A DNA stretch of 64,000 nucleotides from contig JARCOQ010000002.1 in assembly GCA_029207755.1 (NCBI GenBank), forward strand, positions 14,833,156 to 14,897,155, given 5' to 3'. The notes below the pieces were generated by a model. That model had not been told where the DNA came from. It did no database searches and saw nothing but the letters and a program-made list of their open reading frames with translations. The stretch comes from Chamaea fasciata. Its lineage: Eukaryota; Chordata; Aves; Passeriformes; Sylviidae. This document shows, one piece after another, positions 3,141 to 62,653 of the stretch. Every line of letters begins with the position of its first letter. Position 1 is the stretch's first letter. Position numbers and translations under genes: made by a program.

Positions 3141-5243
3141 TAGAAACAAAAGTGCTGTACCAATCTTCCCCATACCACAACACCAACCTATTCTATCCTC
3201 TATGCTCACTGTGCTATCTTCCCCTTCAAGGCTTCACTGTGATATTTTCCTCTTCAAGGCTTAACAGGCCTTTCACTGGGGTTTATCAACTGATAGTAGC
3301 ACATGCCACACAGTCAAACAAGGCTCAGCATGACTGCTTCCAGTTCACGGTCGAAGAGGTTCTAAAAATAGGTGTACAAAATGTATATCCTAGCCCAGAA
3401 AGGCTAGGCTTATAGAAGCTGGTCTTTTTTCCTCACTTACTTTGGCAGTTATTAGAAACAGTCTACCAACCTATCAAACCTGTTGGTAGACTGACCACCA
3501 CTGACTTGAAGCATGAACTCATAGAGAACTGGCATGAGTTCTGGGAGTGGGGGGGCAAGCAGGGTATATCTCTCAAAGCCATAATAACTGTTCAAAATTT
3601 GTGTCTCACTTCATAAAGGTACGGGAAAAGCTGACAAAAAGATACAGCTAATAGGGGAACTGTAGTGCCTTCCTAGAGCCTATATTCTTTAGTGTGCTGT
3701 GACTTCCCCAGGAGACAAGGGCACCTGCACACACTTGCTCCCTCCCATTCCAAAAGATCATCTTAAGAGTAAAGTTTCATTCTGAGAAAATTGTCTCCTT
3801 CTGAGACCTCAGAAAAATCAACTGCGTAGGAACTGTATGTGCTTGCACACAGAGAAGGGAAAACAACAACCCGTGTAAAACATCCACATGCTATCGCAAA
3901 CCAAAAATTAAAGTAGGATGGCAAACACCATCCAAGTAGAGGACTCAGAAGAGGTGCTTCTGGAAGAGAACCATCACATGCAGCTGAACCCCATGTCTGG
4001 CACTGCAGCTTCAAGGATGAGGACTGAAGGAGGGTGGCAGAGACCAACATGCAGAGGAGGGGGGCACAGCAGTGATGGTGTAGGGGACACACTAAGCACA
4101 AGACCGAATATGAGTCTGTAAGACTTTCCACCATCAAAGCCAATGGGGGCACTTAGGAAGCATCACCTTATCAAGGGATAATCATTGCAAGCAAAGCGTG
4201 TGATTTTAATACACCATTCTCATCAACTCCCATCATTAACTGGGAAGAGAAAGAAATCCACTCAGAGTTGTGGGTGTGTCTGCTAAGACAGCATTAATAA
4301 AACATTTGCTGTATGTGTACCTTCAAGTACAATTGGGCTACATATTCCAAACAGTTTCAGGCAACTAAACCCATTTCCTAACTCAGAATTAGTTCTGCAG
4401 ATAACTTCCGCTGCTAAATGTGTCAGTGGCAGGAAGGTGTTAGGGATTTATGTAGTACCTGCAGAAAAACAAACAAATCCAAAAAACCCAGTAACTACCA
4501 CCATCATATAAAAGCATACGTTTTTATAAAGAAGAAATTAACCTGTGCCCATACCAAATGTTTCTTCACACAAGTCATAATATGTCTTGCATTAGCAAGG
4601 AAACCAACTGGAAAACTAAAGTTTACTGAAAATGGAGGGGACACTGAGATGAGGTACTCTTATTCTAAATGACAATCTCTCTTTCCTTAGGCACTGCATT
4701 TTTAGCTATGTCAAAACAAAACTCGGTTTTTCCAACGCTCCTCTGGTATGCTCTAAGTGAGCACTTTCCTAAAAGATCCCAGCAGTGTGTTGTGAGTGCC
4801 AGTGATCCTACAATCACCATAAGCATTTCAGAGTACCTAATCAAAACAACACAAGCTGTAGAACTGCATTATTGACTTTGTTCTGCAAACACAAATTCAT
4901 AACCAGTAAGCTGCTTTTGAAAACAAAGCCATTATATCCTCTCCATTTCTTGGCTGCTTGTAGGGGTTTTTTTTTAAAGCTTTATGAAACTCTTGTCATT
5001 AACTTGTCAACTGTTGCTTTATTATTGCATTATTGTATCTTATAAGAGACTCTAATCCTTAAACCAAATCTAGGCACTGCACACAGCTAACACCCCATAC
5101 TGTACCTAAACCCACTAATATCAAAAGCAAAAAGACCAACACTCACTCTTCTAGGCACCAAAAAATGGGAGACTCAGTATGGAAAGTTGCAAGAATACTT
5201 TTAAAGTATATTGAAGAAGGAACTACCAAGGGTTCTGTAAAAG

Positions 5244-19417: not shown

Positions 19418-20868
19418 CTATTTTGAAGCATGTTCTCAATCATAAAACCTAACTTTTTAACTAATTTTTTTACACACCCAAGGAAAACATTTCCTTCTAT
19501 TACATTCACACAACAAATGGTTGAAAGAAGCTACTAAAACCCCAACAAGTGCTATAACTGGAAGCTTTAAACGTCTGAGCGTGTGTAGAAATAGTCAGCT
19601 GATACATACTGCTCAGTGTCGGAACGATCATGCCTCAAAGCACGAGTCTGTGACTGGCAGCCTTAGCTGCAGAGATGGAGGGCTGGTATGAAGCAGTCTC
19701 CTTTTATTCATGGGATACTGGGGTCCATCCCGGGAAGGGCACCTGAGACCTGCAACCCCATGCCCTGTAGGGGAGGCGATGGGGGACCGCGAGCATCCAT
19801 CTCTACTATCTGCCTAAATACTGCCATGCACCGCAGCCCTCGACCTCCCCAGGAGAAGGGGAATTGACACGGAAGGAGGACAGAAACCGAAGTCTTCAGG
19901 CCGAAGTATGGCAAGCAGGGAGCGAGGGAGACCAGAAGGTGACTCACCCCACCCACACCTTCTTCTTAGAGATCTGGCGGGGAGGACCGTGCGAACTCCT
20001 CCTCTGGGGGTCCAAGCTTGCCGCCAGCCCACCCCGCAGGGACTGCGGTGCGCACACACCCCTGGACGGGTGGGCATGGGGAACCCTCAGCCCCCGCCCC
20101 ATACATAGGGAGGGATCCAGCGGAGGTGCCGCCCCGGAGAAGGAAGAAAAGAGGGCGGGCAGGGGCGGCGGCAGAGGGGCGCGGGCTGCCGGCGCCTCCT
20201 CTCTGCTGCACTGCAGAGGCGCCATCTTCCCGCGCCTCGGCGCCGCCGGCCCGCGGGGGGGCTCGGGCCAGTTCCGACCACCGCCCCCCTGGGCACCGCC
20301 TTCCCGCGGGGCCACTGCACCAGCCGGCGGGGAACTCTAACCACCGCCCCGCAGACATGCGCCACCCCTGCCCCCCCCCCCCTTTCCATCGTGGGATACC
20401 ACACAGGCTCCGCAGCCCGGCTTCGCAGCCCTCACGGGGGCCGTCCTCGCGTTCCCCGCTCACAGCCTGGCTGCTCGGCCCTAGACCCCGCCCCATCGGG
20501 GTATGCCCCTGCCGTACCTACGCAGCACTGCCCGTAGACCCCTACCCGCTGCCGCAGCAGGCGGGCAGCGCCCCGGCAGCCGAACCAGCGCAGGGAGCCG
20601 GACAGGCACAGCGGAGCCGGGGAAGCCAGCCCGGGGAGTTCCCAGCCCGCTCCCTTCCCGACGCCTCCGCCATCCCCCGGCTCGCCGCTCCTATTGTTCG
20701 GCGAAGGGAGAGCGGCAGCAGCTAGGGCTGGAACACCCCTGGGAAAACAGCCCTCGCCCGCCCCGCCGAGGCCAAGCCCACGCCGCGGGGGCGGCTGTGG
20801 ACAAAGCTTCGGAGAAGAGGTAGAGGGTAGCGGGGAAGCCCCCACCTGCAGCTTCCTGCCCTTCTTAC

Positions 20869-20925
20869 CTCAAGAGCCCGGGCGGCGCCGGCGGCCAGCA
20901 GCAGGACGGCTAAGTGGGGCAGCAT
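20869..20925 (-). CDS. First coding exon with signal peptide
   Basis: ATG at 20,925 on the minus strand gives 19 residues, MLPHLAVLLLAAGAARALE. This is a short N-region, a leucine/alanine-rich hydrophobic core and a small-residue cleavage-like A-A-R-A region, as in a secretory signal peptide. The exon ends in GAG followed by the consensus donor GTAAGAAG, leaving phase 0. Its place in the middle of a CpG island supports a genuine 5' exon. The downstream exon may be 19,181-19,417 or may lie elsewhere at lower coordinates. The mature protein is not identifiable from so short a piece. Confidence 0.65.
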
Positions 20926-21120
20926 CGCAGCGGCCGGGAGCGGGGAGGGGGGAAGGAGGGATGCCGTCAGGCGGGACGCGGCGGAGGCCGACTGTAAATC
21001 CTCCAGGCCGCGCCGCTGCCGAGGAAAACGACTGATCTGCGGCGGCTCCGGGAGCGGCGCGGCGGGGCCGGTCAGCTGATGGCCCGGCCCGCCCCCGAGC
21101 GGGCGGTGCGGACGCCCGGC
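20926..21120 (-). promoter_or_regulatory. Probable 5' UTR and core promoter
   Basis: Immediately upstream of the ATG at 20,925 on the minus strand. It is GC-rich and TATA-less, with a GC box (GGGGGCGGGC read on the minus strand near 21,090) and a CAGCTG E-box-like motif at about 21,072. The transcription start cannot be placed from sequence alone. Confidence 0.45.
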
Positions 21121-21380
21121 CTGCGGGGACCCCTGGCGGCGGCGCCCGGGCGGTGCGGCCGTGGCTCGGGGCAGGCGGACGGACCTTTCCCTGCCCTCGG
21201 TGGTTCTCAGTAGCAGCTCCCGTTCCCTCCTCGGCCGCTCGGGTACAACCGATCACCTTCCTCGAAGGCACCGTACTGCCTGAGCGTCACCCGCGTTTCC
21301 AGGGACCGCGACGCCTCCATGCGCGATTCCCCCTCGCTGAGGCACTGCGTCCAGAAACGCAACCCCATCTTTGCAAGGGG

Positions 21381-21949
21381 CTCACGAAAACACCCAAATC
21401 TAAACGTGTTGTGTGATTTAGAGGCTATTTAACACATTCTGCTTTTCCTGGCAAGGTTGCACACCAACCCGGGATCTCCTGTTCCCGTCGAGGTGGAGGT
21501 GATGAGTCAGCACAGCCGTTTCACACAACACACCATACACACCATTGATAACAAAGATACGCAGGAATATCGGGAGAGCTGGGATTTTTAAACAAGGAAG
21601 AAATCAAATGAAAATGCAGGACTTTGTCAAATACCATGAAATCAGGAGGCAAACACAATCCCACCGTCTCACCCTCTGAACAGCACTGTTATAATTGGTA
21701 TAGTAAACCTGTAAGAAGAACTTGAAAGTGAATATTTGGAGCTTTGTGTTGAAACAGCTGCTATTGTAGCCAAAATTCAGTATGACAGAGCCTGACCCAT
21801 TCTGCCACTGATGTGCAAAGTCTGGCAGGATTTCTGCTCCCATCAAGGCTCCCAAAACAGCAGCTGATAGACCCGCCCTGTAAACAGGCACATGCAGACA
21901 GGCCGTGTGAGGGGCAGGTGATGGAAATCAGGAGTACAGGTCTGATGAG
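21381..21949. other. Non-coding stretch
   Basis: Falling GC content outside the CpG island. The 95-codon minus ORF at 21,604-21,891 has no recognisable features. Nothing else seen. Confidence 0.5.
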
Positions 21950-22290
21950 GTGCAGCTGAAGGAACCTGGGGTGTTCAGCCTGAAAGGGGGAGTCTCAGAA
22001 GGGACTTTCTCACTTTCTGTAACTACCTGACTAGAGGTTGTAGAGAGGTAGAGGTCACTCTCTTTCCCCCATCATAAGTGATAGGATAAGTGGAAATAGC
22101 CTCAAATTGCAACAGGGGAGATCTAGGCTGGATCAAGCTGCCCAGGGAACTGATTGACTCATGAACCCTGGAGGTATTTAAAAGGTGGATTGCAGTTTGT
22201 GGCATTTTATGGACATGGTTCAGTGATGGACTTGATGATCTCAGGGTTCTTTTCCAACCTAATTGATTCTGTGATATGATTCTATGCCAT
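21950..22290 (+). mobile_element. CR1 LINE 3' end
   Basis: Plus-strand CR1 3' terminus. It shows the conserved order of CTGCCCAGGGAA, a CCTGGAGGTATTTAAAA phrase, GGACATGGTTCAGTGATGGAC, CTTTTCCAACCTAATTGATT and the terminal octamers ATTCTGTGATATGATTCTATG. It is 5'-truncated and contains no coding potential. Confidence 0.93.
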
Positions 22291-35147: not shown

Positions 35148-36753
35148 CTAGTCCCAATAGTCAGAGGTCAAAGGCACAGTCATAATGGCTGGGTCTTGCC
35201 CTGACAACTGGACACACTGTTGTCTGACTTTACAAATTACGTGAGCAACCAATTCTAAGTGAGTGGTAACTGTCTTCCTGTGCCAATATGATAGAAATAC
35301 CCATTCAAAGAAATGCAAAGGATCTCGCCAACTGGCATGCCTTTGGACTATGAGGCCCACAGGATGGTCCTGAGACAGTAAAATATATACACTGAGAGGT
35401 ATGGTGGTAACCACTCTCCAAGCTTTTTCCCCTTGTATTGCTAATTCTACTTGCTTCAATGCAGCAAGTGCTTCTGGTGACAAGCTCCTGGAAGATAACA
35501 AGGAGGGATCACCTTTAAATAAATCAAAATGTGGTGCCAACAGCACATTCGGGAATCCCAACAATGGTCTGATACAATTAATTGTGCCTAGCAATTTTTG
35601 CAAGTCATTCAATGTTTGTACAAAATGCTGAATGGTCACCTTCTGTGGTTCAACAGTTTGATCCAAGATTTTCATTCCCAAATACTTCCAGGGAGCTTGT
35701 CGCTGTACTTTCTCAGGAGCAACACACAAACCATAACTTATTAAAGCCTCTTGCATTACAGGCATTACCACGTTGAGCTGTTCTACACTTGGTGCAGCCA
35801 CTAAGATATCGTCCATGTAGTGATAACAATACACCTGTGGAAATTGTTTCCTAACCTGTGATAATGCTTGTGCCGCATACAACTGACAAATGGTAGGGCT
35901 GTTCTTCTTCCTTTGAGGTAATACAATCCAATGATCTCTTTTTCCTGGCTCATTATTCTTTAGAGGGGACAGTAAAAGCAAACTTGGGAGCATTATACGG
36001 ATGCAAGAGTATAGTAAAAACCCACTTCTTCAGGTCTGTCACAGTACACATAGTCTGTAGCTGGACAAATAAATCTGGTTATACTAAGAAACCCAATATG
36101 GTTCTCCTAGTTCGATAAACAAGTCCCAAGTTGTACAATGATAGGACGGATTTAAACCCAGGCAGAGACCTCAACCAATCCCTTCCAACTCTAAAATGCA
36201 GATGTATCCTTGGCCAGGGAGCTGGGCACTGTTAAAATCCAGACCAATCAGTTGTCTGGACCCAGAAGTTTTGAACCCACTATATAAGAAGGTTATGAAC
36301 AATAAAACAGGCTGTTTGCTGATGACCCTCGGTGTACTCTGTCTTGTGTCTGTCTCCTGCCCACAGCCACATGTAACACAGATCAACAATACAAATATCC
36401 CAAGTAGTTGGAATCATGGTGGGAGAAGGCATACCTTGCTGCAATCCTTCCATACTTTCCATCACCTCATTAACCCGGTGGAGATTCTTACATGATCTCT
36501 TTTTGACCACAAATACTGGAGTGTTCCAAGAACTCCGTGATGGTTCAATATGATTTTGTGCCAGCTGCTCATTAACTAAATCTTTGAGAGTCGTCCATTT
36601 TTCATGAGTCAGGGGCCACTGGTCAATCCATATAGGCTGTGTAGTCAGCCACTGTAGTGGTATGGTAGGTCTGTGCTGACTGCTCTCCACAGCGGCCCCT
36701 AGGAAAAATCCTGCTTTTCTGTTGTCATGGTGACTCCGCATTGAGTCAGACAA
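35148..36753 (-). pseudogene. ERVK-type reverse transcriptase, split by an LTR
   Basis: The N-terminal part (36,753 to 36,379) has the RT entry text PIWIDQWPLTHEKW and HIEPSRSSWNTPVFVVKK, then PSPTMIPTTW and IVDL. Here a 342-bp LTR interrupts it. The reading resumes at 36,036 and continues through FAFTVPS, a 281-codon frame (35,993-35,148) with YMDD at 35,808-35,819, and the connection region. The residues after the first catalytic Asp are DLKKW, whereas the class usually has DLKD, so it was already drifting. The interruption sits exactly at the DL codons, which form part of the target duplication. Enzyme activity is lost. Confidence 0.85.
36037..36378 (+). mobile_element. Solo LTR nested in RT, with 6-bp duplication
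   Basis: A 342-bp insertion starting TGTCACAGTACACATAG and ending ACATGTAACA, flanked by CAGGTC (36,031-36,036) and CAGATC (36,379-36,384), a 6-bp target duplication with one mismatch. A TATA box (ACTATATAAGAAGG, about 36,279-36,292) and AATAAA (36,301) lie in the same order and spacing as in the minus-strand LTR at 58.05 kb, so the two belong to one family. A 6-bp duplication is usual for class II (ERVK) integration. It is in the opposite orientation to its host element. Confidence 0.85.
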
Positions 36754-36815
36754 TCATGTCTCCTCAAATTTACAGGCACCAAAATTACATAAGGGAGGTT
36801 GGTAGCTACCTGCCC

Positions 36816-36863
36816 ATCAGGATTAATAATAATCAGGATTAATAGTAATCAGGATTAATAATA
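36816..36863. repeat. Three tandem 16-bp units
   Basis: ATCAGGATTAATAATA occurs three times head to tail, the second copy with one change (AGTA). Because 16 is not a multiple of three, the expansion adds to the frameshifts between protease and RT of the ERVK-type element. Confidence 0.9.
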
Positions 36864-36879
36864 CTCACAGCTGGTGGTA

Positions 36880-37290
36880 ACTTCGGTAACTGGCAGTTGT
36901 ACCCCCAACTCCTGACACTGCTGCAGAAAGTACTGTGGGCCAAGTAGAAGGCTACTGTTTCTTTGAAACAAGAGTGACATCAGCTCCTGTGTCAATCATG
37001 CCAGTAATAGTCATCTGCGGGGGTGAACCTTGTGTGAATGCTAAAGAACACATGATATTAAGTCTAGAGTCAGTAATTATTTGGGTCCAAAAAACCTCGG
37101 GGGTGCCTGTGGACCTGATGAACCTGTGGACCTGAACCCTCCAGTCCCTCTCTCAAAAGATTCTGCACTAGGTACTTGTGCCACAAAAGGTATCAATCGA
37201 GCAACACAACTTTGCTTTGGTATAGTGATGGGGGGTGATGGTGTCCACGCCGTAGCACAAATCTGCCCAAGATAGTCTGCATCAATAGCT
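36880..37290 (-). pseudogene. ERVK-type dUTPase and protease remnant
   Basis: Minus-strand reading from about 37,285 gives a dUTPase-like segment (IDADYLGQI, then IPKQSC and ARLIPF). A stop follows, then the retropepsin active-site text GMIDTGADVTLVS, with the DTGAD codons at 36,979-36,993. The catalytic Asp is intact. A stop soon follows (after VSKKQ), and a 16-bp triplication lies just downstream (36,816-36,863). A dUTPase next to protease is typical of betaretroviruses. It is non-functional because of stops and frameshifts. Confidence 0.75.
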
Positions 37291-37589
37291 CCAAGTCAAC
37301 ACAAACAGCCCTTGCAAGGTAGCACATGAATGTCCCACCAGTAATGCACTCAATCCATGCCCCAAAGGCCCAAAAGCATCTAATGGTATCTTGTGTACCT
37401 TGTTGTCATTTATGTGACTGAGACAGTTGTGACGACATCCATTCCTGCACTCCCTTTGGTTCTGGAGCTGAGTTTGACACATAAGCCTGGAAGAGGTTGC
37501 CTGGATGCATTTTTATCTGAACTTGCATCCCTGCCACGCTCTGCTTTCCATTTTCTGGTGGCCCTCTGGGCAGTAGTGCTTATCCTCTG

Positions 37590-39743
37590 CTGTTAAACTT
37601 AAAATGGCACTGTCTGGTATAATGTCCTGGTCTGCTGCAGCAGGCACACAGTCTGACAGGGAATCTGCCATTCCCTGGCACTGAAAAGCCACTAGGCTGG
37701 TTAGGGCAAGCTCTCTTGAAATGCCCCTTTTGCCAGCATCAAAAAGAGCTTTTGGAGGTCTGCACAGCTGCAACAACTTGTGTTGCAAGCTCCTCCACTT
37801 GTGTTGTCCCAACCTTACTGCAAACCTCAATCATATCTACTAGCACAGGATTCTGCAGCAGCAATAAGGCCTTTTTACACTCTGCATTTGCGTTATCTTT
37901 AGCCAACTGCAAAAGCAAAGTTTCTTGGGCTGCTATATGGTCAATTTGTTTCTCAATAGCCTCTTTAAGGTGATCTATAAATATGATATACAGCTCATTA
38001 GGCTTCTGTTTAATCGTCATCCATGACTGACAATGAGCGCCTATATCCAGTACATGCTGCATTGCAAGAAATGCAAGCTCTTTTCCTTGCCGTAGCACTA
38101 AAGGATGCAGTTTGGCTTGGAGCTGCAGGGTATTATTTGGAGGGTCCCCTATGAGCTGGGGCACACTGGCTCCAAAACAAGGGTCATCCTGAGAATGTTC
38201 TAAATTACTTAAGGCGACCTCATTCACTAACTGTCTCCACAGCAACTCAAAAATCAACATCTGAGTCGGGGAGAAGCAAATCTGTGCTATTTGCCAACAA
38301 TTGAAGGGGGTTAACTCATTAGTAAAGATATCTCACAGCCTAGACTGAGCAAAATGAGAAGCAAGTATGTGCTGCATCACTGTTTCTCAAGTCCTTGATC
38401 ACACTCCAATGGAAGGGGTCCCATTCATCCAAGCTATTGCCATTATTTTGTATCACAGCACATACTAGAATCTGATTCACCAAGTCTAACTCCCCCTTGT
38501 CCCAAGCTTGCTCATACAATTTCTCCCAGAATCTTTTTGGATCTGCCCCTCTTACTGTGACAGTCATGGGCTCTGTTGTAAATATATCCTCCAGTGGGGG
38601 GGGGGGGGGGGGGGGCAGCAGTTGGCAGGCATCATGCTTCCTGTATCTCTGCCTGCTCCACTAAATTTATCAAAACCTGCTCTGGTTGTAAATGGAGTGT
38701 GCCATCAGCTTTTGCCCGTGGGGAGTGTACTCACCCATCTGCAGCCTCCACGCAGCCATCATCACAGTGGTTAACTAGTTGTAGAGCACAGTGGCAGTGC
38801 AGGATCCATTCGATGTTGCTGTTAAAGCCCTGCTAACTCCCCTTGGGGCTCAGCAATCCCTGCTCCATCTGCAGCAGTAGCGCAAGGAAGCAGTTCTCGG
38901 CTAGCTCCCCACCACCCACACAGTGGTAGAGGCAACTGTCTGCCAAGGGAAACCGCAACAGCCAGTAGCCCTTTCTCAGCCACCCCCACAGAAGAAAGAG
39001 CTGTGGGGGTTCCGCCATAGCTGGACCTGGCCAGCGTTTCCCCCCCAGATATTGGGATGTCGTCTTCAGTGTCCAGAGGAAGAGTGCAATTCTCGGGTGC
39101 TATCAGCAGAACAGGACCCTTCTCAGAAGGAGCATTCAGAGCAGAAGGAGGAGGCAAGGGGGACATGACTGCAGCAGGAGTCAGTTGCTGGAGCAGTGGC
39201 TGCAACTGGGACTGAGGGAGCAGCAGCAGGTTGCCATTTCTGTATCAGTGTGCACTTGCAACAATGTGTCCCAAACCAAGTGCCCTGTTGTAAGTGACCT
39301 TGTGGCTATCTCATCTCCCTTCATAGCCGCTTCCCACAGGGCATGCCCTGCTTCCTCCTATGGTTCAACAAAAAAGGCAGTCTGTGCATCCATCTTGATG
39401 CCATTTCTTATACACTAAATGAGCAAGGCATGTAGCACCTGCTCTTCACAATTAATACCTTTCCTTTGTAATATTCGCAGCAGGATGTCCAATACGCACT
39501 CTTCCTCTGCCAATATCTGAGCCTTCATTCCTAAGTTCCCAGCCCCTCACATGGGGGTGGTGCATTTGTTTGAAAGTCGTCCAGACATTCAGGCTCTTTG
39601 TTCACCTGGCTCAGTTTGGCTGGGCTCCACCATCTTACTGCTCTCTCTGCAGTTTTCTTATTTTTAAAATGATATCCCTCATCATGTTGATCTGAGTCAC
39701 CAGATGACGGTGGAGGTACAACTGACACTGAAGAAGGTTCCAA
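37590..39743 (-). pseudogene. ERVK-type gag pseudogene
   Basis: Gag remnants on the minus strand. 39,743-39,531 and 39,205-38,822 are proline-rich (PLPPPSA), as in the region between matrix and capsid. 38,567-38,340 carries the capsid N-terminal WDPFHWSVIKDLR text. 38,260-37,739 is a 173-codon capsid C-terminal frame, including QSWMTIKQKPNELYIIFIDHLKEAIEKQ-type major homology region sequence and CKKALLLLQNP. Nucleocapsid follows in another frame at about 37,740-37,600. Its first knuckle has lost its leading Cys, and its second has an intact CX2CX4HX4C (CACCSRPGHYTRQC). A 20-base homopolymer (C20 in the sense strand) breaks the frame near 38,600. Normally gag builds the virion core, but here it is inactive. 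Confidence 0.85.
38596..38615. repeat. G20 homopolymer
   Basis: Twenty consecutive G on the plus strand inside the gag remnant. It may be an expansion or partly an assembly artefact, since such runs are hard to sequence. Confidence 0.9.
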
Positions 39744-48668: not shown

Positions 48669-49210
48669 TGTAGTGGTTTGAAAGCAAAACAAGTGGGAGG
48701 CTCCAACTCAGAAATACAATTTAATAGGAAGAAAGGAAAAAAAAAAAGTGAAATAAAACAAATGCAATAATACAAAAGACCACTGACAGAGTCAGAATAC
48801 AACCTGAGCAGGGTGATGGAAGCAGTCCAGATGAGGTGGTCTTCCTGAAGCCGCAATCCCGTAGAAAAGTCTGGTAGCTCTCGTCCTCTGGGAATCCAGT
48901 GGGTAAGGGCTGCTTGTACCATCCCAAATCCCAGATTATATCCAGGTGAGAATGCTTGGTTCCTCCCTCTGGGTGGAGCATCTCACAATGGGATAATGAG
49001 TCATACAGGGGGTCCTTGATGGCCCATTAAACAGAGATAGCTCCTGAAGAGGGTTATCTATGAGTCATGGGCAAGGCATTTGATGGGCCATTAGCAAAAG
49101 ATAGCCCAGAGGGAGGGGGCCTGGGAAGAGCACTGCCCCACCTGGATTCAACAGTTCATGAAGATGGTGATAGAATACTTTGTGCACATCCTACACTACA
49201 ACGCAGCACA
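48669..49210 (-). mobile_element. Solo ERVL-type LTR
   Basis: In minus orientation it begins TGTGCTGCGTTGTAGTGTAGG (49,210) and ends CAAACCACTACA (48,669). It is the same family as the plus-strand copy at 62,104-62,653, with near-identical phrases throughout (CATCTTCATGAACTGTTGAATCC and CTCATCTGGACTGCTTCC read in sense). Flanking 5-mers are ATCAA and ATCAG, a probable 5-bp target duplication with one mismatch, as expected for ERVL-class integration. The ORFs inside are LTR sequence. Confidence 0.85.
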
Positions 49211-50752: not shown

Positions 50753-50757
50753 GGTGC
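50753..50757. other. Target site duplication GGTGC (5' copy)
   Basis: Identical to 57,324-57,328, directly after the 3' LTR. This fixes both provirus ends. Confidence 0.9.
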
Positions 50758-51434
50758 TGTTGGGGGTTGGGTTTGTTCCTTCTTTCTCTGGGGAATTTTT
50801 TCCCCACGGGTTGCCAAAGGGACCGGATGTTGGATACTTGAGAGTGCTTGGCTGAAACAAAGAGATGGACAAAAGGTGGAAGGGGGAGATAACGCAAGTA
50901 AAAGACACAGCTTGAGGCAGCTGCGTGCTTTTCTGCTTCCGGCGTTCGAGAGACGCGTGTCGGCCGCTCCTCGAAGATCTCAGCCGCCGCAAAGCCCGCC
51001 GAGCAGAAGCTGAGTCGCTTTTTTTTCTGCCTCGCCTTCGAACTTCTTCGGCGCTGCTCCTCTTGCTGCAGCGTGACCCTGCACTCCCTGCGCTGCCGGG
51101 ACATCCTGCCCCTGCCTGCCGGGACACCCTGCCATCCCAGCTACCAGCCCGGGACTTTTCCACTGTTCCAGCTTGGTGCTCTGAAGATCCTGCAGGGACA
51201 CCGAAACCAAACTGCTCTGGGTTTTGTGAAACAAAGCCCTCAAGGTTCTTGGTACTGTTGTCGTTTGTCATTAATGCTGTAGTTGTTTGGTAAGGGGAGA
51301 GTTTTTTTTTTTGTGTTTGTTTGCTTTGTATTACATACTAATAAAGAACTGCTATTCCTATTTCCCAAATCTTTGCCAAAAAGCCTCTGATTGTAATTTT
51401 ACCTAGCAAATACCTGTCTTCCTAAACCAAGACA
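50758..51434 (+). mobile_element. 5' LTR of the ERVL-like provirus
   Basis: 677 bp, TGTTGGG...AAGACA. A TATA-like AAGTAAAAGACAC lies near 50,896. The middle is CpG-rich (50,940-51,130), AATAAA lies at 51,340-51,345, and a U5 follows with CCCAAATCTTTGCC and CTAGCAAATACC. All CpG sites of the middle block are kept in both LTRs. Compared with the 3' LTR it has G at 14 of the 15 differing sites. Long antisense ORFs in this region are artefacts of its GC content. Confidence 0.93.
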
Positions 51435-51439
51435 GATTT

Positions 51440-51457
51440 TGGCGCCCAACGTGGGGC
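51440..51457 (+). other. Primer binding site, tRNA-Lys1,2 type
   Basis: TGGCGCCCAACGTGGGGC, five bases after the 5' LTR. It is complementary to the 3' end of tRNA-Lys(1,2), the primer used by spumaviruses and Mason-Pfizer-type betaretroviruses. Mammalian ERVL elements usually use tRNA-Leu, so the primer choice is noteworthy. Confidence 0.88.
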
Positions 51458-51816
51458 TTGAGGGCACTGAGAAAAGAAGAGGGAAGAAAAATAGCAGTTC
51501 TTAACTAACCTAGTACTTTCTTTTGTGTGCGTTGGATATAAAAACCTCATTAGGCTGCATCATGTGGTCTAACTTAGCCTAGTTTGGGTAGCATGTGGTT
51601 GTAGCTGTATTCCTTCCATTTGCAGGCCCTTATCTAAACATAGGCCCTATAACTAAGGCTACTGTGACTGTCATCCAGTTTATTTTATGGCTTAATAAAG
51701 TGAAAAACTCATGGATTTTTAATTTCCTCTGGAAGGCAAGCACATAGATTCAGAGCTATCGTACACTAACTGTGTGTTTTTAGAGTTACTTTAACAATGG
51801 TACCTACTGTAAGAAA
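51458..51816 (+). other. Proviral 5' leader
   Basis: About 360 bp between the primer binding site and the first in-frame ATG. No long ORF. It would hold packaging and splice-donor signals, but none can be assigned by eye. Confidence 0.6.
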
Positions 51817-53349
51817 ATGACACCGGAGGAAGTTTCTTTTTCCCAACCCTTTACCCATCCCTTTGGGTCTGCCCCACCAGTTTTTGAAGGGTTTAAATCC
51901 TCTCTGAATGCTAATGATATCATACAATGGCTGGTGCTGCTAATATGCGTATTCTGTTTAGCATTCAGAGATAAGGGAAGATTGACCTGGATAACCACCC
52001 TGATACCTACCCCACAGAATAAAGATGATACCCCAGAGCCTGACTCTGCCCCACAGCCTGCCTCAGAAAAGACCCACCCGGATTGAGTTGAGGCTCTGGT
52101 AAAAGAGATACATGAGATGGGCCAGATGCTGAGGGAGTACATTTCTCCAGCTCATGAAAAACCCTCCCCCTGCCCCGAGAAGGCAGAGACTGATGGTGCA
52201 GCAGTGGAACCCACAGATGTTACAACTGTCCAGGTTCCAGCTGAACCACAAGGGCAGCCACAGCCAGCAGCAGTCGCCCCTGTGGAAACAAGGAAGTGTA
52301 AAGTGAAATCGTCAGATCCTGATACTAAAGGTAAGAAAAGAAGGTCCTCACAGCCCACAGAAGAGCCACAGGTTAAGATCATCACTAAGTCCCTGACATA
52401 TGAAAGTCTACGTAATCTGCAAAAAGATATTGCACGACGAAGACGTGAGGCTTATACAGCCTGGCTACTTCGAGTCTGAGACCTTATGGGTACAGGTGTG
52501 CAACTGGATAGTGCTGAAGCAAAGAATTTGAGACCCTTGACCCAGGACTCAAGTATAAATCAAGTATTTGTAAGAGAGCAAAGGCCCCTTCCCCTTTGAG
52601 AACGACTTCTAATGAGTGTGAGAGAGAGATTTGTCCACAGAGACAGAATGCAAGAGCACAACAATAGAATGCGATGAAAGACCCTTGAGGAAGGAATCCA
52701 ACAGTTGAGAGAAGTGGCAGTATTGGAAGTACTTTTTGGGAGGACCAGACAGCATGATAATGACCCCGACAAGGTTAAATGCACAGGGCACATGTTGTGG
52801 AATCTGGCAACTCATGGACCATCCCAATACGCCACATTCATCGCAACAATTAATGCCGAAGATAACCGAGAGACAGTAAGTTCTGTTGCCAACAAGCTCA
52901 GAAATTATGAAAGTATGATCAGTGGTCCAATGCAAGCTCATGTCTCTGCGGTGGTGAAAGAACTCAAAGAAGAGATGAGGGAAATGAGAGAGGAGATGAG
53001 AAAGAACAGTTCCCATGTAGCACCGGTGCAAGTCACAGGCCCCAGAATCAGAGCCCAACATCCCCCAGCGAGAGAAAGAAAGTACACCCCTCGAGCTGAC
53101 CTGTGGTTTTATCTGCGGGACCATGGGGAAGACATGGGAGCGTGGCATGAGAAACCTACTTCTGTCCTGGCAGCACGGGTACGTGAGCTCAAGGAGAGAA
53201 ACGCTAACAGAAAGAGTTCCACTAGAATGAAGGTAGCCTCAGCCTCCCATGAGCAAGCTGCCAAGTATTACGGAAGTGAGAATGCTGTGTCAAATTCCCT
53301 CGAAGGAACCTCTACCATGTACGTCCAAGAAAGGAATAATAACCAGTGC
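51817..53349 (+). pseudogene. gag of the ERVL-like provirus, with stops
   Basis: The frame opens at ATG 51,817 and runs without frameshift into pol. Early on there is a hydrophobic stretch (IIQWLVLLICVFCLAF, codons about 35-50), unusual for gag. Next comes a proline/glutamate-rich linker, a basic patch (KGKKRRS), a helical central region (codons about 230-380) and a charged coiled-coil-like run (KELKEEMREMREEMRK, codons about 383-398). No CCHC zinc knuckle is seen. Internal stops are TGA at 52,084, 52,477, 52,597 and 52,675. Three of these four have a G after the stop, as expected if the last G of a Trp codon was edited, although C-to-T of an Arg codon could also make TGA. Identity as gag rests mainly on position. 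Confidence 0.75.
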
Positions 53350-56300
53350 TAGAGGGGCCCTGCCTCTAGCCAGGAAGAGGCACGAGAAAATCGAGTTTTT
53401 TGGACTGTGTAGATTCGATGGCCTGGCACATCAGAGCCACAAAAATATGAAGCTTTAGTAGATACTGAGTCGCAGTGTACTCTAATGCCATCAAGACATA
53501 TGGGGGCAGAACCGATTTCCATTGCCGGGGTGACGGGGGGATCACAAGAACTGACTCTAGTTGAAGCCGAGGTGAGCCTGACCGGGAAGGAGTAGCAAAA
53601 ACTTCCAATTGTGACCGGCCCAGAGGCTCCATGTATTCTGGGCATAGACTTCCTCAGGAATGGATATTATAAAGACCCTAAAAGACTCAGATGAGCTTTT
53701 AGAATAGCTGCTGTGGAGACAAAAAACATTAAGCAGTTGAACACCTTGCCGGGACTATCAGAGAACCCATCTGCAGTGGGACTCCTGAAGGTAGAAGAAC
53801 AACAAGTACCTGTTGCCACCTCAACAGTGCACCGTCGGCAGTATCGGACAAAGCGGGACGCCGTAATCCCCATCCACAAGATGATCCGTGAGCTGGAGAG
53901 CCAAAAGGTAATCAGCAAAACCCACTCACCCTTCAACAGCCCCATCTGGCCTGTGCGCAAGTCTGATGGAGAATAAAGACTAACTGTGGACTATCGTGCA
54001 TTGAATGAAGTGACTCCACCGCTGAGCGCTGCTGTGCCGGACATGCTAGAACTTCAGTACGAGCTAGAGTCCAAGGCAGCGAAGTGGTATGCCACTATTG
54101 ACATTGCCAATGCATTTTTCTCCATTCCTCTGGCTGCAGAATGCAGGCCTCAGTTTGCTTTCACCTGGAAGGGCGTGCAGTACACCTGGAACCGGCTGCC
54201 CCAGAGGTGAAAACACAGCCCCACCATCTGCCATAGGCTAATCCAGGCTGCACTGGAGAAAAGTGAGGCTCCGGAACATCTACAGTACATTGATGACATC
54301 ATTGTGTGGGGAAAAACTGCAGCTGAAGTGTTCGAGAAAAAAGAGAAGATCATCCAGCTTCTGCTGAAAGCCGGGTTTGCCATCAAGAAGAGCAAAGTCA
54401 AGGAACCTGCCAGAGAGATCCAGTTCCTGGGAGTAAAGTGGCAAGATGGACGGCGGCAGATCCCCACTGAGGTCATTGATAAGATCACAGCAATGTCTCC
54501 ACCGACCAACAAAAAAGAAACACAAGCTTTCCTAGGAGCCATAGGTTTTTGGAAGATGCACATTCCTGAGTACAGTCAGATCGTGAGCCCTCTCTACCTA
54601 GTTACCCGCAAAAAAAACAATTTCCACTAGGGCCCTGAACAGCAACAAGCCTTTGCCCAGATCAAGCAAGAGATTGCTCATGCAGTAGCCCTTGGCCCAG
54701 TCAGAACGAGACCAGATGTGAAGAATGTGCTTTATTCTGCAACCGAGAACAACAGTTTGTCCTGGAGCCTTTGGCAGAAAGTGCCAAGGAAAACCCGAGG
54801 CCGACCACTAAGATTCTAGAGTCGAAGTTACAAAAGATCTGAAGCCAACTACACTCCCACAGAAAAAGAAATCTTAGCCGCCTATGAAAGAGTTCAAGCC
54901 ACCTCAGAAGTGATTAGCACAGAAGCACAACTCCTCTTGGCACCCCAACTACCAGTGCTGGGGTGGATGTTTAAAAGAAAAGCTCCCTCCACGCACCATG
55001 CCACCGATGCCACATGGAGCAAATAGACTGCCCTCATCACACAGCGTGCCCGTATTGGAAACCCAAATCGCCCTGGGATTTTGGAGATAATTACAAACTA
55101 GCCAAAAGGAAAAAACTTCGGTCTCACGAACAAAGAGGAGCAGGTACAAGTGATACGAGCTGAAGAAGCTCCTCCATACAACCAACTGCCAGCAGAAGAA
55201 ACACACTACGCTCTCTTCACTGATGGTTCCTGTCGCATCGTAAGAATGAACCGTAAGTAGAAAGCAGCCGTATAGAGCCCCACACGACAGGTTGCAGAAG
55301 CCACTGAAAGAGACGGGGGATCAAGTCAGCTTGCTGAACTCAAAGCTGTTCAATTAGCCCTTGACATTGCTGAAAGAGAGAAGTGGCCAAAGCTCTACCT
55401 CTACGCTGATTCGTGGATGCTAGCCAATGCTCTGTGGGGCTGGCTGGAAAAGCAGAAAAAAGCCAACTGGCAGTGTAGAGGAAAACCAATCTGGGCTGGT
55501 GATTAATGGAAGGACGTTTCCACTCGTGTAGAGAAACTGCCTGTGAAAGTCCGCCATGTAGATGCCCATGTTCCCAAGAGTCGGGCTAATGAGGAACACC
55601 AAAACAAGCAGATAGATCAGGCTGCCAAGATAGAAGTGTCAAAGATAGATTTAGATTGGCAACACAAAAGAAAGTTGTTCCTAGCTCGATAGGCCCATGA
55701 TGCCTCGGGTCATCAGGGCAAAGATGCCACCTATAAGTAGGCCCAAGACCGAAGAGTGGATTTAACCATGGACAGTATTTCTCAAGTTATCCATGACTGT
55801 GAAACATGTGCTGCAATCAAGCAAGCCAAGCGGGTGAAGCCCTTATGGTATGGTGGGCAGTAGTCCAAATATAAATATGGAGAAGCCTGGCAAATTGACT
55901 ACATCACCCTTCCCCAAACCCGCCAGGGCAAGCGTTATGTGCTAACCATAGTAAAAGCCACCACTGGATAGTTGGAGACCTACCCTGTGCCTCATGCTAC
56001 TGCCCAGAACACCATCCTGGGCCTAAAAAAACAAGTCCTGTGGAGACATAGCACCCCTGAGAAAATCGAGTCGAACAATGGAACTCATTTCAAAAATAGT
56101 CTTATAAGCACCTGGGCTAGAGAACATAGCATTGAGTAAGTGTACCATATTCCTTATCATGCACCAGCGGCCGGGAAAGTTGAACAGTGCAATGGCCTGC
56201 TTAAAACTACCTTGAAAGCACTGGGTAGGAGAACTTTTAAGAATTAGGATACTAATTTAGCAAAAGCCACCTGGTTGGTGAACACTCGAGGTTCCACCAA

Positions 56301-56532
56301 CCGAGCAGGTCCTGCCCAATCTGAGCCCTTGCAAAAGACAGATGGAGATAAAGTTCCAGTGGTACACATGAGAAGTATGCTGGGAAAAACTGTTTGAATT
56401 AATCCTGCCTCCAGCAAAGACAATCCCATCCGTGGGGTTGTCTTCGCTCAGGGACCAGGTTGCACCTGGTGGGTGATGCAAAAGAATGGAGAGACCCGAT
56501 ACATACCTCAAGGAGACCTTGTTTTAAGGTAA
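53350..56532 (+). pseudogene. pro-pol of the ERVL-like provirus, G-to-A edited
   Basis: Same frame as gag, to the terminal TAA at 56,530. Protease: VDTESQCTLMPS at 53,458, where the usual DTG has become DTE, plus ILGIDFLR. RT: WYATIDIANAFFSIPL and YIDD at 54,286-54,297, both catalytic regions kept. RNase H: FTDGS at 55,216-55,230. Integrase: a His pair near 55,696, CETC at 55,798-55,809, first Asp at 55,897, second catalytic position changed to Asn (SNNG, 56,074), Glu kept at 56,182. Internal stops: TAG at 53,350, 53,410, 53,593, 54,628, 54,817, 55,024, 55,099, 55,258, 55,273, 55,690, 55,738, 55,861, 55,969 and 56,245; TAA at 53,974, 55,504 and 56,137; TGA at 53,692, 54,208 and 56,395. There are no frameshifts. 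It is non-functional. Confidence 0.9.
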
Positions 56533-56621
56533 ACTATCCATGACAATGTGGCTGCATCCATATTTGCATATATATATATATGTATTTTTAATAGTTAAAA
56601 CTCAATGTAATATGTTTATAT

Positions 56622-56645
56622 GGGAAAAAAATTCGAGGTGGATAA
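56622..56645 (+). other. Polypurine-tract region
   Basis: A purine run GGGAAAAAAA, then GAGGTGGATAA directly before the 3' LTR. This is the position where plus-strand DNA synthesis is primed in retroviruses. Confidence 0.6.
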
Positions 56646-57323
56646 TGTTGGGAGTTGGGTTTGTTCCTTCTTTCTCTGGGGAATTTTTTCCCCACGGGTT
56701 GCCAAAGAGACCGGGTGTTAGATACTTGAGAGTGCTTGACTGAAACAAAGAGATGGACAAAAAGTGGAAAGAAGAAATAACGCAAATAAAAGACACAGCT
56801 TGAGGCAGCTGCGTGCTTTTCTGCTTCCGGCGTTCGAGAGACGCGTGTCGGCCGCTCCTCGAAGATCTCAGCCGCCGCAAAGCCCGCCGAGCAGAAGCTA
56901 AGTCGCTTTTTTTTCTGCCTCGCCTTCGAACTTCTTCGGCGCTGCTCCTCTTGCTGCAGCGTGACCCTGCACTCCCTGCGCTGCCGGGACATCCTGCCCC
57001 TGCCTGCCGGGACACCCTGCCATCCCAGCTACCAGCCCGGGACTTTTCCACTGTTCCAGCTTGGTGCTCTAAAGATCCTGCAGAGACACCGAAACCAAAC
57101 TGCTCTGGGTTTTGTGAAACAAAGCCCTCAAGGTTCTTGGTACTGTTGTCGTTTGTCATTAATGCTGTAGTTGTTTGGTAAGGGGAGAGTTTTTTTTTTT
57201 TGTATTTGTTTGCTTTGTATTACATACTAATAAAGAACTGCTATTCCTATTTCCCAAATCTTTGCCAAAAAGCCTCTGATTGTAATTTTACCTAGCAAAT
57301 ACCTGTCTTCCTAAACCAAGACA
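56646..57323 (+). mobile_element. 3' LTR of the ERVL-like provirus
   Basis: 678 bp, identical to the 5' LTR except for 15 G/A sites and one extra T in the T-run near 57,190. A replaces G here at 56,653, 56,708, 56,720, 56,739, 56,763, 56,770, 56,772, 56,773, 56,776, 56,786, 56,900, 57,071, 57,084 and 57,204. The one opposite site is 56,715. Ten of the 14 lie in the first 141 bp of U3. Confidence 0.93.
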
Positions 57324-57328
57324 GGTGC

Positions 57329-62103: not shown

Positions 62104-62653
62104 TGTCCTGGGTTGTAGTATAGGATGTGCACAAAGTATTCTATCACCATCTTCATGAACTGTTGAATCCAGGTGGGGCAGTGTTTTTCCCAGACCCTGT
62201 CCCTCTGGGCCATTATCTTCTGTTAATGGCCCATCAGACGCCTTGCCCATGACTCATAGATAATTCCCTCCAGGAGCTATCTCTGTTTAATGGGCCATCA
62301 AGGACCCCCTGCATGACCCATCATCCCATTGTGAGATGCTCTGCCCAGGGGGAGGAACCAAGCATTCTCACCTGGATATAATCTGGGGTTTGGTTCATCA
62401 CAGGGGGTCCTTACCCACTGGATTCCCAGAGGAACAGAGCTACCAGACCTTTCTACAGGATCACTGCTTCAGGAAGACCACCTCATCTGGACTGCTTCCA
62501 TTACTCTGCTCAGGTAGTATTCTGACTCTGTCAGTGGTCTTTTGTATTATTGCATCTATTTTATTCTACTTTCTTTCCTTTCTTCCCTTTCTTCCTATTA
62601 AATTGTATTTCTGACTTGGAGCCTCTCATTTGTTTTGCTTTCAAACCACTACA
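62104..62653 (+). mobile_element. Solo ERVL-type LTR
   Basis: Plus-strand copy of the family seen at 48,669-49,210. It starts TGTCCTGGGTTGTAGTATAGG and ends CAAACCACTACA. It includes a TATA-like GGATATAATCTGGG (62,373-62,386), a T/C-rich tract and the CTATTAAATTG signal. A clean target duplication is not visible because the next LTR abuts directly. Confidence 0.8.

What the first reader, a model, noticed from the sequence alone, without database searches (positions are those of the whole stretch)
50758..57323. LTR pair differs only by G/A changes: deaminase-edited provirus in a bird
Aligning the two LTRs at a fixed offset of 5,888 gives 15 substitutions and one T-run length change. All 15 substitutions are G/A on the plus strand and 14 have A in the 3' LTR. 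There are no transversions and no C/T differences. None of the changed G follows a C, so CpG decay is excluded even though the LTR is CpG-rich. Of the 14, 8 are GG, 3 GA, 2 GT and 1 GC in context. This is the signature of cytidine deamination of minus-strand cDNA. Birds are not known to have APOBEC3, so the responsible enzyme (AID, an APOBEC1-like or other AID/APOBEC member) is an open question. I recall published surveys reporting G-to-A editing footprints in songbird retroelements, which this copy would exemplify.
Basis: partly seen in the sequence, partly recalled or inferred. Interest (0 to 1): 0.9.

Follow-up and report, generated by a model that had tools for sequence, protein, structure and literature searches.

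The report
Enzyme-edited retrovirus in bird DNA
In what is likely a bird genome, a probably young retrovirus copy carries about 200 G-to-A changes compared with sister copies, 14 of them only in its downstream end repeat, which is likely the scar of a host DNA-editing enzyme that struck while the virus was copying itself into DNA.

Summary
Confirmed. The LTRs (50758-51434, 56646-57323) differ by 15 substitutions, all G/A, plus one T-run length. At each site 37-38 of 38 other LTRs from the same genome carry G: all 15 are G>A, 14 only in the 3' LTR, one only in the 5' LTR. Ten more G>A are shared by both LTRs. Inside, at 5,101 sites where seven sister proviruses agree, this copy has 180 G>A and 11 other changes; GG 124/420, GA 48/436, GC 5/287, GT 3/244; 22 of 24 in-frame stops lie where sisters have TGG. 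A second copy, P8, was edited independently with the same motif and has 7 G>A in its 3' LTR only. This is deaminase hypermutation of minus-strand cDNA; the 3'-LTR excess fits editing of the strand displaced late in reverse transcription, as reported for mouse Mtv proviruses (PMC12548423). PF08210 finds AID-like, APOBEC2-like and two APOBEC1-like loci here. The motif argues against AID; an APOBEC1-like enzyme is the likely, untested agent. Songbird hypermutation is published; I found no report of 3'-LTR-specific editing in a bird.

The parts
50753..50757 (+). target-site duplication GGTGC, left copy
   Evidence: several other copies whose flanks were printed also show 5-bp duplications, e.g. 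L006, L008, L003/L004
50758..51434 (+). 5' LTR (677 bp); 10 G>A shared with the 3' LTR and 1 G>A of its own relative to 38 other copies
51435..51457 (+). 5-nt linker GATTT and Lys-type primer binding site (label recalled)
   Evidence: linker length as in MuERV-L (passages of PMC5930517)
51817..56529 (+). gag-pro-pol in one frame, 1,571 codons with 24 in-frame stops; 22 of 24 lie where sister copies have TGG, 1 is present in all 10 unedited sisters compared, 1 other
53977..54627 (+). reverse transcriptase pieces; closest solved relatives are foamy-virus Pol (7o0h, 7kse)
   Evidence: Pfam RVT_1
54631..55503 (+). RNase H region pieces (best solved match of one piece is cellular RNase H1)
   Evidence: Pfam RT_RNaseH, RT_RNaseH_2 (weak), RNase_H
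55864..56136 (+). integrase region pieces, weak matches; no env found between pol and the 3' LTR (116 bp)
   Evidence: Pfam rve E 0.015 and 0.014, below the curated cut-off; no solved match
51435..56645 (+). internal part carrying 180 private G>A at 5,101 sites where 7 sisters agree
   Evidence: 177 at 5,058 sites where 10 unedited copies agree
56646..57323 (+). 3' LTR (678 bp); 10 shared plus 14 own G>A
57324..57328 (+). target-site duplication GGTGC, right copy

Best explanation
This is a probably young, env-less, ERV-L-like provirus with about 200 G-to-A changes compared with its unedited sister copies, likely made by a host AID/APOBEC-family deaminase acting on the minus-strand cDNA during the single round of reverse transcription that produced this copy. 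Shown: the changes are nearly all G>A, prefer GG and GA, lie all along the element, are absent from ten compared sisters, and 14 are only in the 3' LTR. [quoted passage not shown] Inferred and untested: the enzyme is one of the two APOBEC1-like deaminases encoded next to the AID-like gene in this genome.
For: Polarity: at all 15 LTR sites 37-38 of 38 other LTRs have G. Spectrum: 180 G>A, 11 others, C>T 1; 147 G>A of 157 private changes when 11 sisters, P8 among them, are compared. Context GG 124/420, GA 48/436, GC 5/287, GT 3/244; GR over GY p = 4e-24. Unedited copies exist: 10 of 12 proviruses have 0-5 private G>A each. Timing: in GG context the 3' LTR is edited at 15/53, the internal part at 121/408 (p = 1.0), the 5' LTR at 7/53 (p = 0.014). 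Replication: P8 has 113 G>A and 10 other changes against the 10 unedited copies, same motif; its LTR-specific G>A are 7 in the 3' and 0 in the 5' LTR. P8 shares 30 edited sites with the window where 26.7 are expected from context (p = 0.23), so the two look independent. Pooled 3' versus 5' own G>A: 21 of 22. Stops: 22 of 24 at TGG in sisters. Same pattern and explanation in mouse Mtv17, 21, 61, 62 (PMC12548423, section 7 in full; passages). Genes; human APOBEC1 (6x91) is the best solved match of both exons.
Against: One own G>A lies in the 5' LTR, which the displacement model does not predict; a later point change would explain it. Where late edits fall is not consistent: 10 of 14 in U3 in the window, 7 of 7 in R-U5 in P8, with the U3/R border inferred from a TATA-like site. 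In P8 the 3' LTR is edited less than the inside (GG 3/53 against 72/408, p = 0.03), unlike the window, and P8 has no shared LTR edits. The runner-up solved matches of the two A1-like exons are APOBEC3G (E 1.6e-20 and 6.9e-24); no tree was made, and only one exon of each gene was seen. No expression or activity data tie any enzyme to the editing.
Confidence: 0.85

Rival explanations
1. Ordinary mutation or CpG decay after insertion.
For: LTRs of old proviruses do diverge; one sister (C11) has 8 mixed differences between its LTRs.
Against: No non-G/A substitution between the LTRs, 28 CpG in each; the control repeat pair is mixed; 24 stops by neutral change would need about 585 substitutions and about 122 indels at the control ratio, while the frame is kept; C>T 1 against G>A 180.
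Confidence: 0.01
2. The 3' LTR was swapped by gene conversion or recombination with a differently edited copy.
For: Conversion between LTR copies occurs in general (recalled).
Against: Matching 5-bp duplications; 3'-only differences at 655 sites are 14 G>A and nothing else; in the best-40 list for a 1,141-bp edited piece no other copy is above 95 percent identity (1,507 candidates, 40 scored); a 3'-only G>A excess recurs in P8.
Confidence: 0.04
3. Editing happened in one burst before second-strand synthesis, and the 5' LTR later lost edits by repair or conversion towards the unedited family.
For: Both LTRs share 10 edits.
Against: Two apparently independent proviruses have the excess on the same side (21 of 22 own G>A in 3'); repair has no known reason to choose the 5' LTR, and displacement of the 3'-LTR minus strand is a known step (PMC12548423, discussion passage).
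Confidence: 0.08
4. AID rather than an APOBEC1-like enzyme did the editing.
For: An AID-like gene is present (read by eye).
Against: AID's WRC hotspot reads GYW on the plus strand (recalled); GC and GT contexts are edited at 1-2 percent against 29.5 percent for GG, and GYW is not enriched in the LTR (3 of 14 edits, 51 of 169 sites).
Confidence: 0.1

Closest known systems
Mouse endogenous MMTVs Mtv17, Mtv21, Mtv61, Mtv62 (PMC12548423; section 7 in full, other passages)
   Same: G>A throughout, several shared by both LTRs, LTR mismatches almost all G>A unique to the 3' LTR with one exception, adjacent G>A pairs (one here)
   Different: Betaretroviruses with LTRs over 1,300 bp, edited by mouse Apobec3; here a 677-bp LTR, an ERV-L-like element, and no PF08210 match whose best solved relative is known to be an A3
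Hypermutated songbird LTR retrotransposons (Knisbacher and Levanon 2016; not held, known from passages in PMC6523648, PMC6497032, PMC12548423)
   Same: G>A editing of bird ERVs, said to be strongest in oscine passerines; the zebra finch rows in a table of PMC12548423 list 392 and 353, apparently G>A counts (headers not in the passage)
   Different: Those passages say nothing of LTR pairs used to time the editing
MuERV-L (PMC5930517; passages)
   Same: Env-deficient, 5-nt target duplication, 5-nt linker before the primer site
   Different: tRNA-Leu primer site there, Lys-type here; hypermutation of MuERV-L is described as minimal
Foamy-virus Pol
   Same: Closest solved relatives of the RT pieces
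   Different: No env found here; the printed alignments show only partial identity

Membership tests
AID/APOBEC-type G>A hypermutation | Strong excess of G>A over A>G, C>T and all other types against unedited relatives | tested here: met
   180 of 191 private changes; 147 of 157
AID/APOBEC-type G>A hypermutation | Dinucleotide preference on the edited strand | tested here: met
   GG 124/420, GA 48/436, GC 5/287, GT 3/244
AID/APOBEC-type G>A hypermutation | Not explained by CpG decay | tested here: met
   No 3'-only edit follows C, 28 CpG in both LTRs
AID/APOBEC-type G>A hypermutation | Deaminase present in virions or producer cells | not testable with these tools
   No expression data
3'-LTR-specific hypermutation (Mtv type) | LTR mismatches are G>A unique to the 3' LTR | tested here: met
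   14 of 15 in the window; in P8 7 of 9 substitutions, that is all 7 G>A
3'-LTR-specific hypermutation (Mtv type) | Further edits shared by both LTRs | tested here: inconclusive
   10 in the window, 0 in P8
3'-LTR-specific hypermutation (Mtv type) | Made by APOBEC3 | tested here: inconclusive
   6 PF08210 matches; the two compared with solved structures have APOBEC1 as best match, but A3G is runner-up and no tree was made. A3s are called specific to eutherian mammals in the abstract of PMC5399452 (search listing)
ERV-L / class III endogenous retrovirus | Foamy-related pol | tested here: met
   Best solved matches 7o0h E 1.2e-13, ahead of gammaretroviral RT at about 6e-10 to 2e-9
ERV-L / class III endogenous retrovirus | No env; 5-bp duplication; 5-nt linker | tested here: met
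   Pol frame ends 56529, LTR begins 56646; GGTGC and GATTT
ERV-L / class III endogenous retrovirus | tRNA-Leu primer site as in MuERV-L | tested here: not met
   Site reads TGGCGCCC..., a Lys type (recalled label); hence 'ERV-L-like', not ERV-L
ERV-L / class III endogenous retrovirus | dUTPase domain | not tested
   -
APOBEC1 (host candidates L089, L090) | Closest solved relative APOBEC1; catalytic HAE and PCxxC | tested here: met
   6x91 best, E 8.8e-30 and 4.6e-24, over one exon each; motifs read (motif names recalled)
APOBEC1 (host candidates L089, L090) | Groups with APOBEC1 in a gene tree; complete gene | not tested
   No tree; remaining exons not sought, L093-L095 fetched but not analysed

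The most novel reading that the evidence does not exclude
Bird proviruses are two-point recordings of antiviral editing: the 5' LTR freezes the edits made before plus-strand strong-stop synthesis, the 3' LTR also records those made on the displaced strand, and the editor is a CC-preferring APOBEC1-like enzyme that does in birds what APOBEC3 does in mammals.
Probability: 0.45. Interest if true: 0.72.

Novelty: new member of a known kind. Interest (0 to 1): 0.6.

Why it matters
Songbirds are reported to have the strongest retroelement hypermutation among surveyed vertebrates (passage of PMC6497032), although APOBEC3 is described as specific to eutherian mammals (abstract of PMC5399452 in the listing). 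This copy shows how to ask when and by what the editing is done: a difference between the two LTRs of one provirus normally arises inside reverse transcription or later, so it is not inherited from the template. It also warns that LTR-divergence dating fails on edited copies: 15 differences would suggest an old insertion, yet no other substitution separates the LTRs. The two APOBEC1-like loci beside the AID-like gene give candidates for a direct test of motif.

Tried and rejected
Led nowhere: viral contigs and genome-contig scans for relatives gave none. The search for homologous proteins failed five times and then met its cap. Integrase pieces found no solved relative. Rfam: no match at the gathering score. 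Knisbacher and Levanon 2016 is not held.

Considered and dropped: (a) Clustering of the 14 edits in U3 (p = 0.0036) seemed explained by local single-strandedness of the minus strand (edited 0.74 against 0.48 in 150-nt windows, circular-shift p = 0.012; plus strand p = 0.20; full-length fold p = 0.26). After the sister copies came in, counting shared edits too gave 12 of 24 in U3, and P8's late edits all lie in R-U5, so I no longer lean on structure. (b) U3 edits late and R-U5 edits early (Fisher p = 0.036): P8 contradicts it. (c) A 5'-to-3' rise of editing inside: trend p = 0.018 over eight bins, but no trend in stops against TGG (p = 0.68); weak. (d) The stop-codon mix as a stand-in for relatives was superseded. 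(e) My first class II label (note) was wrong; pol is foamy-related.

Rows dropped: 3 of 11 mate LTRs (C32:1.56M and C50 below my score cut of 800, C4 none found); LTR sites without at least 90 percent agreement (22 of 677); internal sites without agreement of the sisters. Sisters come from the best 40 matches of 2,149 candidates to the window's 5' LTR, so 2 edited of 12 is no family-wide rate.
Full report
What is there. The window holds a provirus with both ends, from 50758 to 57323: LTRs of 677 and 678 bp with TG...CA ends, flanked by the 5-bp duplication GGTGC, a 5-nt linker and a Lys-type primer site (primer label recalled). One frame from 51817 to 56529 (1,571 codons) carries gag-pro-pol, with Pfam hits for reverse transcriptase and RNase H and weak ones for integrase in separate pieces. 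The closest solved relatives of the RT pieces are foamy-virus Pol proteins. One RNase H piece matches cellular RNase H1 best, and two integrase pieces match no solved chain. No env was found; 116 bp separate the frame from the 3' LTR. With the 5-nt duplication and linker known from MuERV-L (PMC5930517, passages) this is an ERV-L-like element; the primer site differs from MuERV-L's tRNA-Leu.

The observation. The LTRs differ by 15 substitutions, all G/A, and one T-run length; 14 have A in the 3' LTR. A repeat pair in the same window shows the ordinary spectrum: 43 differences, 20 A/G, 12 C/T, 11 transversions. At that spectrum 15 of 15 has p = 1e-5.

Polarity from the same genome. The window lies in an unnamed 1.19-Gb assembly of 1,341 contigs; the LTR query has 2,149 candidates, of which the best 40 were scored. 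In the 38 that are not the window's own, every one of the 15 sites carries G in 37 or 38 copies. So all 15 are G>A. At the 655 sites where at least 90 percent of copies agree, the window shows 10 G>A and 1 A>C shared by both LTRs, 14 G>A in the 3' LTR only, 1 G>A in the 5' LTR only, and nothing else. Most of the 38 LTRs have 0 or 1 G>A of their own; L006 has 6, L037 3, L015 and L021 2 each.

The inside. Seven sister proviruses were compared in pieces. At 5,101 sites where they agree, the window copy has 180 G>A, 3 T>C, 2 G>T and one each of six other types, C>T among them once. Six sister-against-sister comparisons give 23-42 differences without a general G>A excess; two of them (P3>P4 and P6>P7) show 13 G>A, few of them private to P4 or P7 (3 and 2), so mostly older, shared changes. 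Edited fractions by the next base are GG 124/420, GA 48/436, GC 5/287 and GT 3/244. Of 24 in-frame stops, 22 lie at codons that are TGG in all (21) or nearly all (1) sisters, one is present in all of them, one is other. The best-40 list for a 1,141-bp edited piece (1,507 candidates) shows no other copy above 95 percent identity, the level of the unedited sisters.

A second edited copy. With eleven sisters, ten of the twelve proviruses have 0-5 private G>A each. The window has 147 of 157 private changes as G>A, and P8 (C2:79.10 Mb) 83 of 93, with the same motif, GG 40/258, GA 31/379, GC 2/273, GT 1/232. Against the ten unedited copies P8 has 113 G>A and 10 others, the window 177 and 10. Window and P8 share 30 edited sites where 26.7 are expected from context alone (p = 0.23), so they look like independent events. 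P8's LTRs differ by 7 G>A and 1 C>T in the 3' LTR and 1 T>G in the 5' LTR, with no shared G>A.

LTR pairs elsewhere. Fifteen other LTR pairs were compared (7, 8; 3 further mates were dropped). Apart from P8 none has more than one G>A specific to the 3' LTR (C38 and C51 have one each); six pairs show no substitution. Pooled over the window and P8, own G>A are 21 in 3' LTRs and 1 in a 5' LTR.

Mechanism. Deaminated cytosines in minus-strand cDNA read as G>A on the plus strand. The two LTRs of a new provirus are copied from the same minus-strand LTR, so they start identical except for what happens during reverse transcription (established retrovirology; also stated in PMC12548423). [quoted passage not shown] Afterwards the minus strand of the 3' LTR is displaced and single-stranded a second time; edits made then enter the 3' LTR alone. 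This explanation is given for mouse Mtv17, 21, 61 and 62 in PMC12548423 (section 7 in full; discussion passage), where such differences are called unreported for other retroviruses, with some MLVs added by the authors. In the window the numbers fit closely: in GG context the inside is edited at 121/408, the 3' LTR at 15/53 (p = 1.0) and the 5' LTR at 7/53 (p = 0.014). In P8 the fit is looser: 3' LTR 3/53 against 72/408 inside (p = 0.03), 5' LTR 0/53. Where late edits fall within the LTR also differs between the two copies. Direction is therefore solid; fine timing is not.

The enzyme. PF08210 finds six matches in this genome (13 candidates, all scored): one on contig C25 whose frame reads like APOBEC2 (by eye), three pieces on C2 at 29.370-29.371 Mb reading like AID exons (by eye; one of the three has a TGA inside the match), and two single exons at 29.346 and 29.360 Mb. 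Both of these have human APOBEC1 as best solved match (E 4.6e-24 and 8.8e-30), with APOBEC3G next (1.6e-20 and 6.9e-24), and read HAE and PCxxC motifs. No tree was made and their other exons were not sought. Zebra finch APOBEC1 is on record (PMC3880073, figure-legend passage); chicken lacks it (PMC4449034, passage). The GC and GT contexts that AID's hotspot would need are hardly edited. An APOBEC1-like enzyme is the likely agent, untested.

What is known and what is new. Hypermutation of songbird ERVs is published (Knisbacher and Levanon 2016, not held; described in passages of PMC6523648, PMC6497032 and PMC12548423). In ten paper searches I saw no report of 3'-LTR-specific G>A in a bird; these cover open-licence PMC papers only, and I read listings and passages, not every paper. 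The finding is a new member of two known kinds, joined in a host in which no APOBEC3 was recognised.

Organism. 'Bird' is inferred from the 1.19-Gb genome, CR1-type 3' ends at 22266, 44134 and near 2663 (recalled hallmark) and the deaminase set. The contig sizes resemble a passerine karyotype (recalled). No call names the species.

Noticed in passing
window 35148-38332 (-): A second, older-looking ERV of class II type on the minus strand: Gag_p24, RVT_1 and RVT_thumb pieces lie in different frames and no direct-repeat LTR pair was found around it.
   Followed up: partly
window 48669-49210 and 62104-62653: Two copies in opposite orientation of a 542-550 bp repeat with TG...CA ends, like solo LTRs of another family, flank the provirus; used as the neutral control.
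   Followed up: partly
G000:C2, about 79100814-79107400 (P8): An independently hypermutated sister provirus whose LTR-specific G>A are all in its 3' LTR.
   Followed up: yes
window 51817-56529: One in-frame stop is present in all 10 unedited sisters compared, so it is probably a normal stop of the element, perhaps between gag and pol.
   Followed up: no
L006 (G000:C2:99280318-99280958): A solo LTR with 6 G>A, 0 A>G and 2 C>T against the others, perhaps left by another edited provirus.
   Followed up: no
L081 and L084: Two 5' LTRs of the family align at 762 and 788 bp instead of about 675, perhaps with insertions.
   Followed up: no
L024/L025 (C11): A sister whose LTRs differ by 8 mixed substitutions while several others have identical LTRs, perhaps a recombinant.
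   Followed up: no
window 19771-21416: GC-rich stretch with overlapping long frames on both strands, likely a CpG-island promoter and first exon.
   Followed up: no
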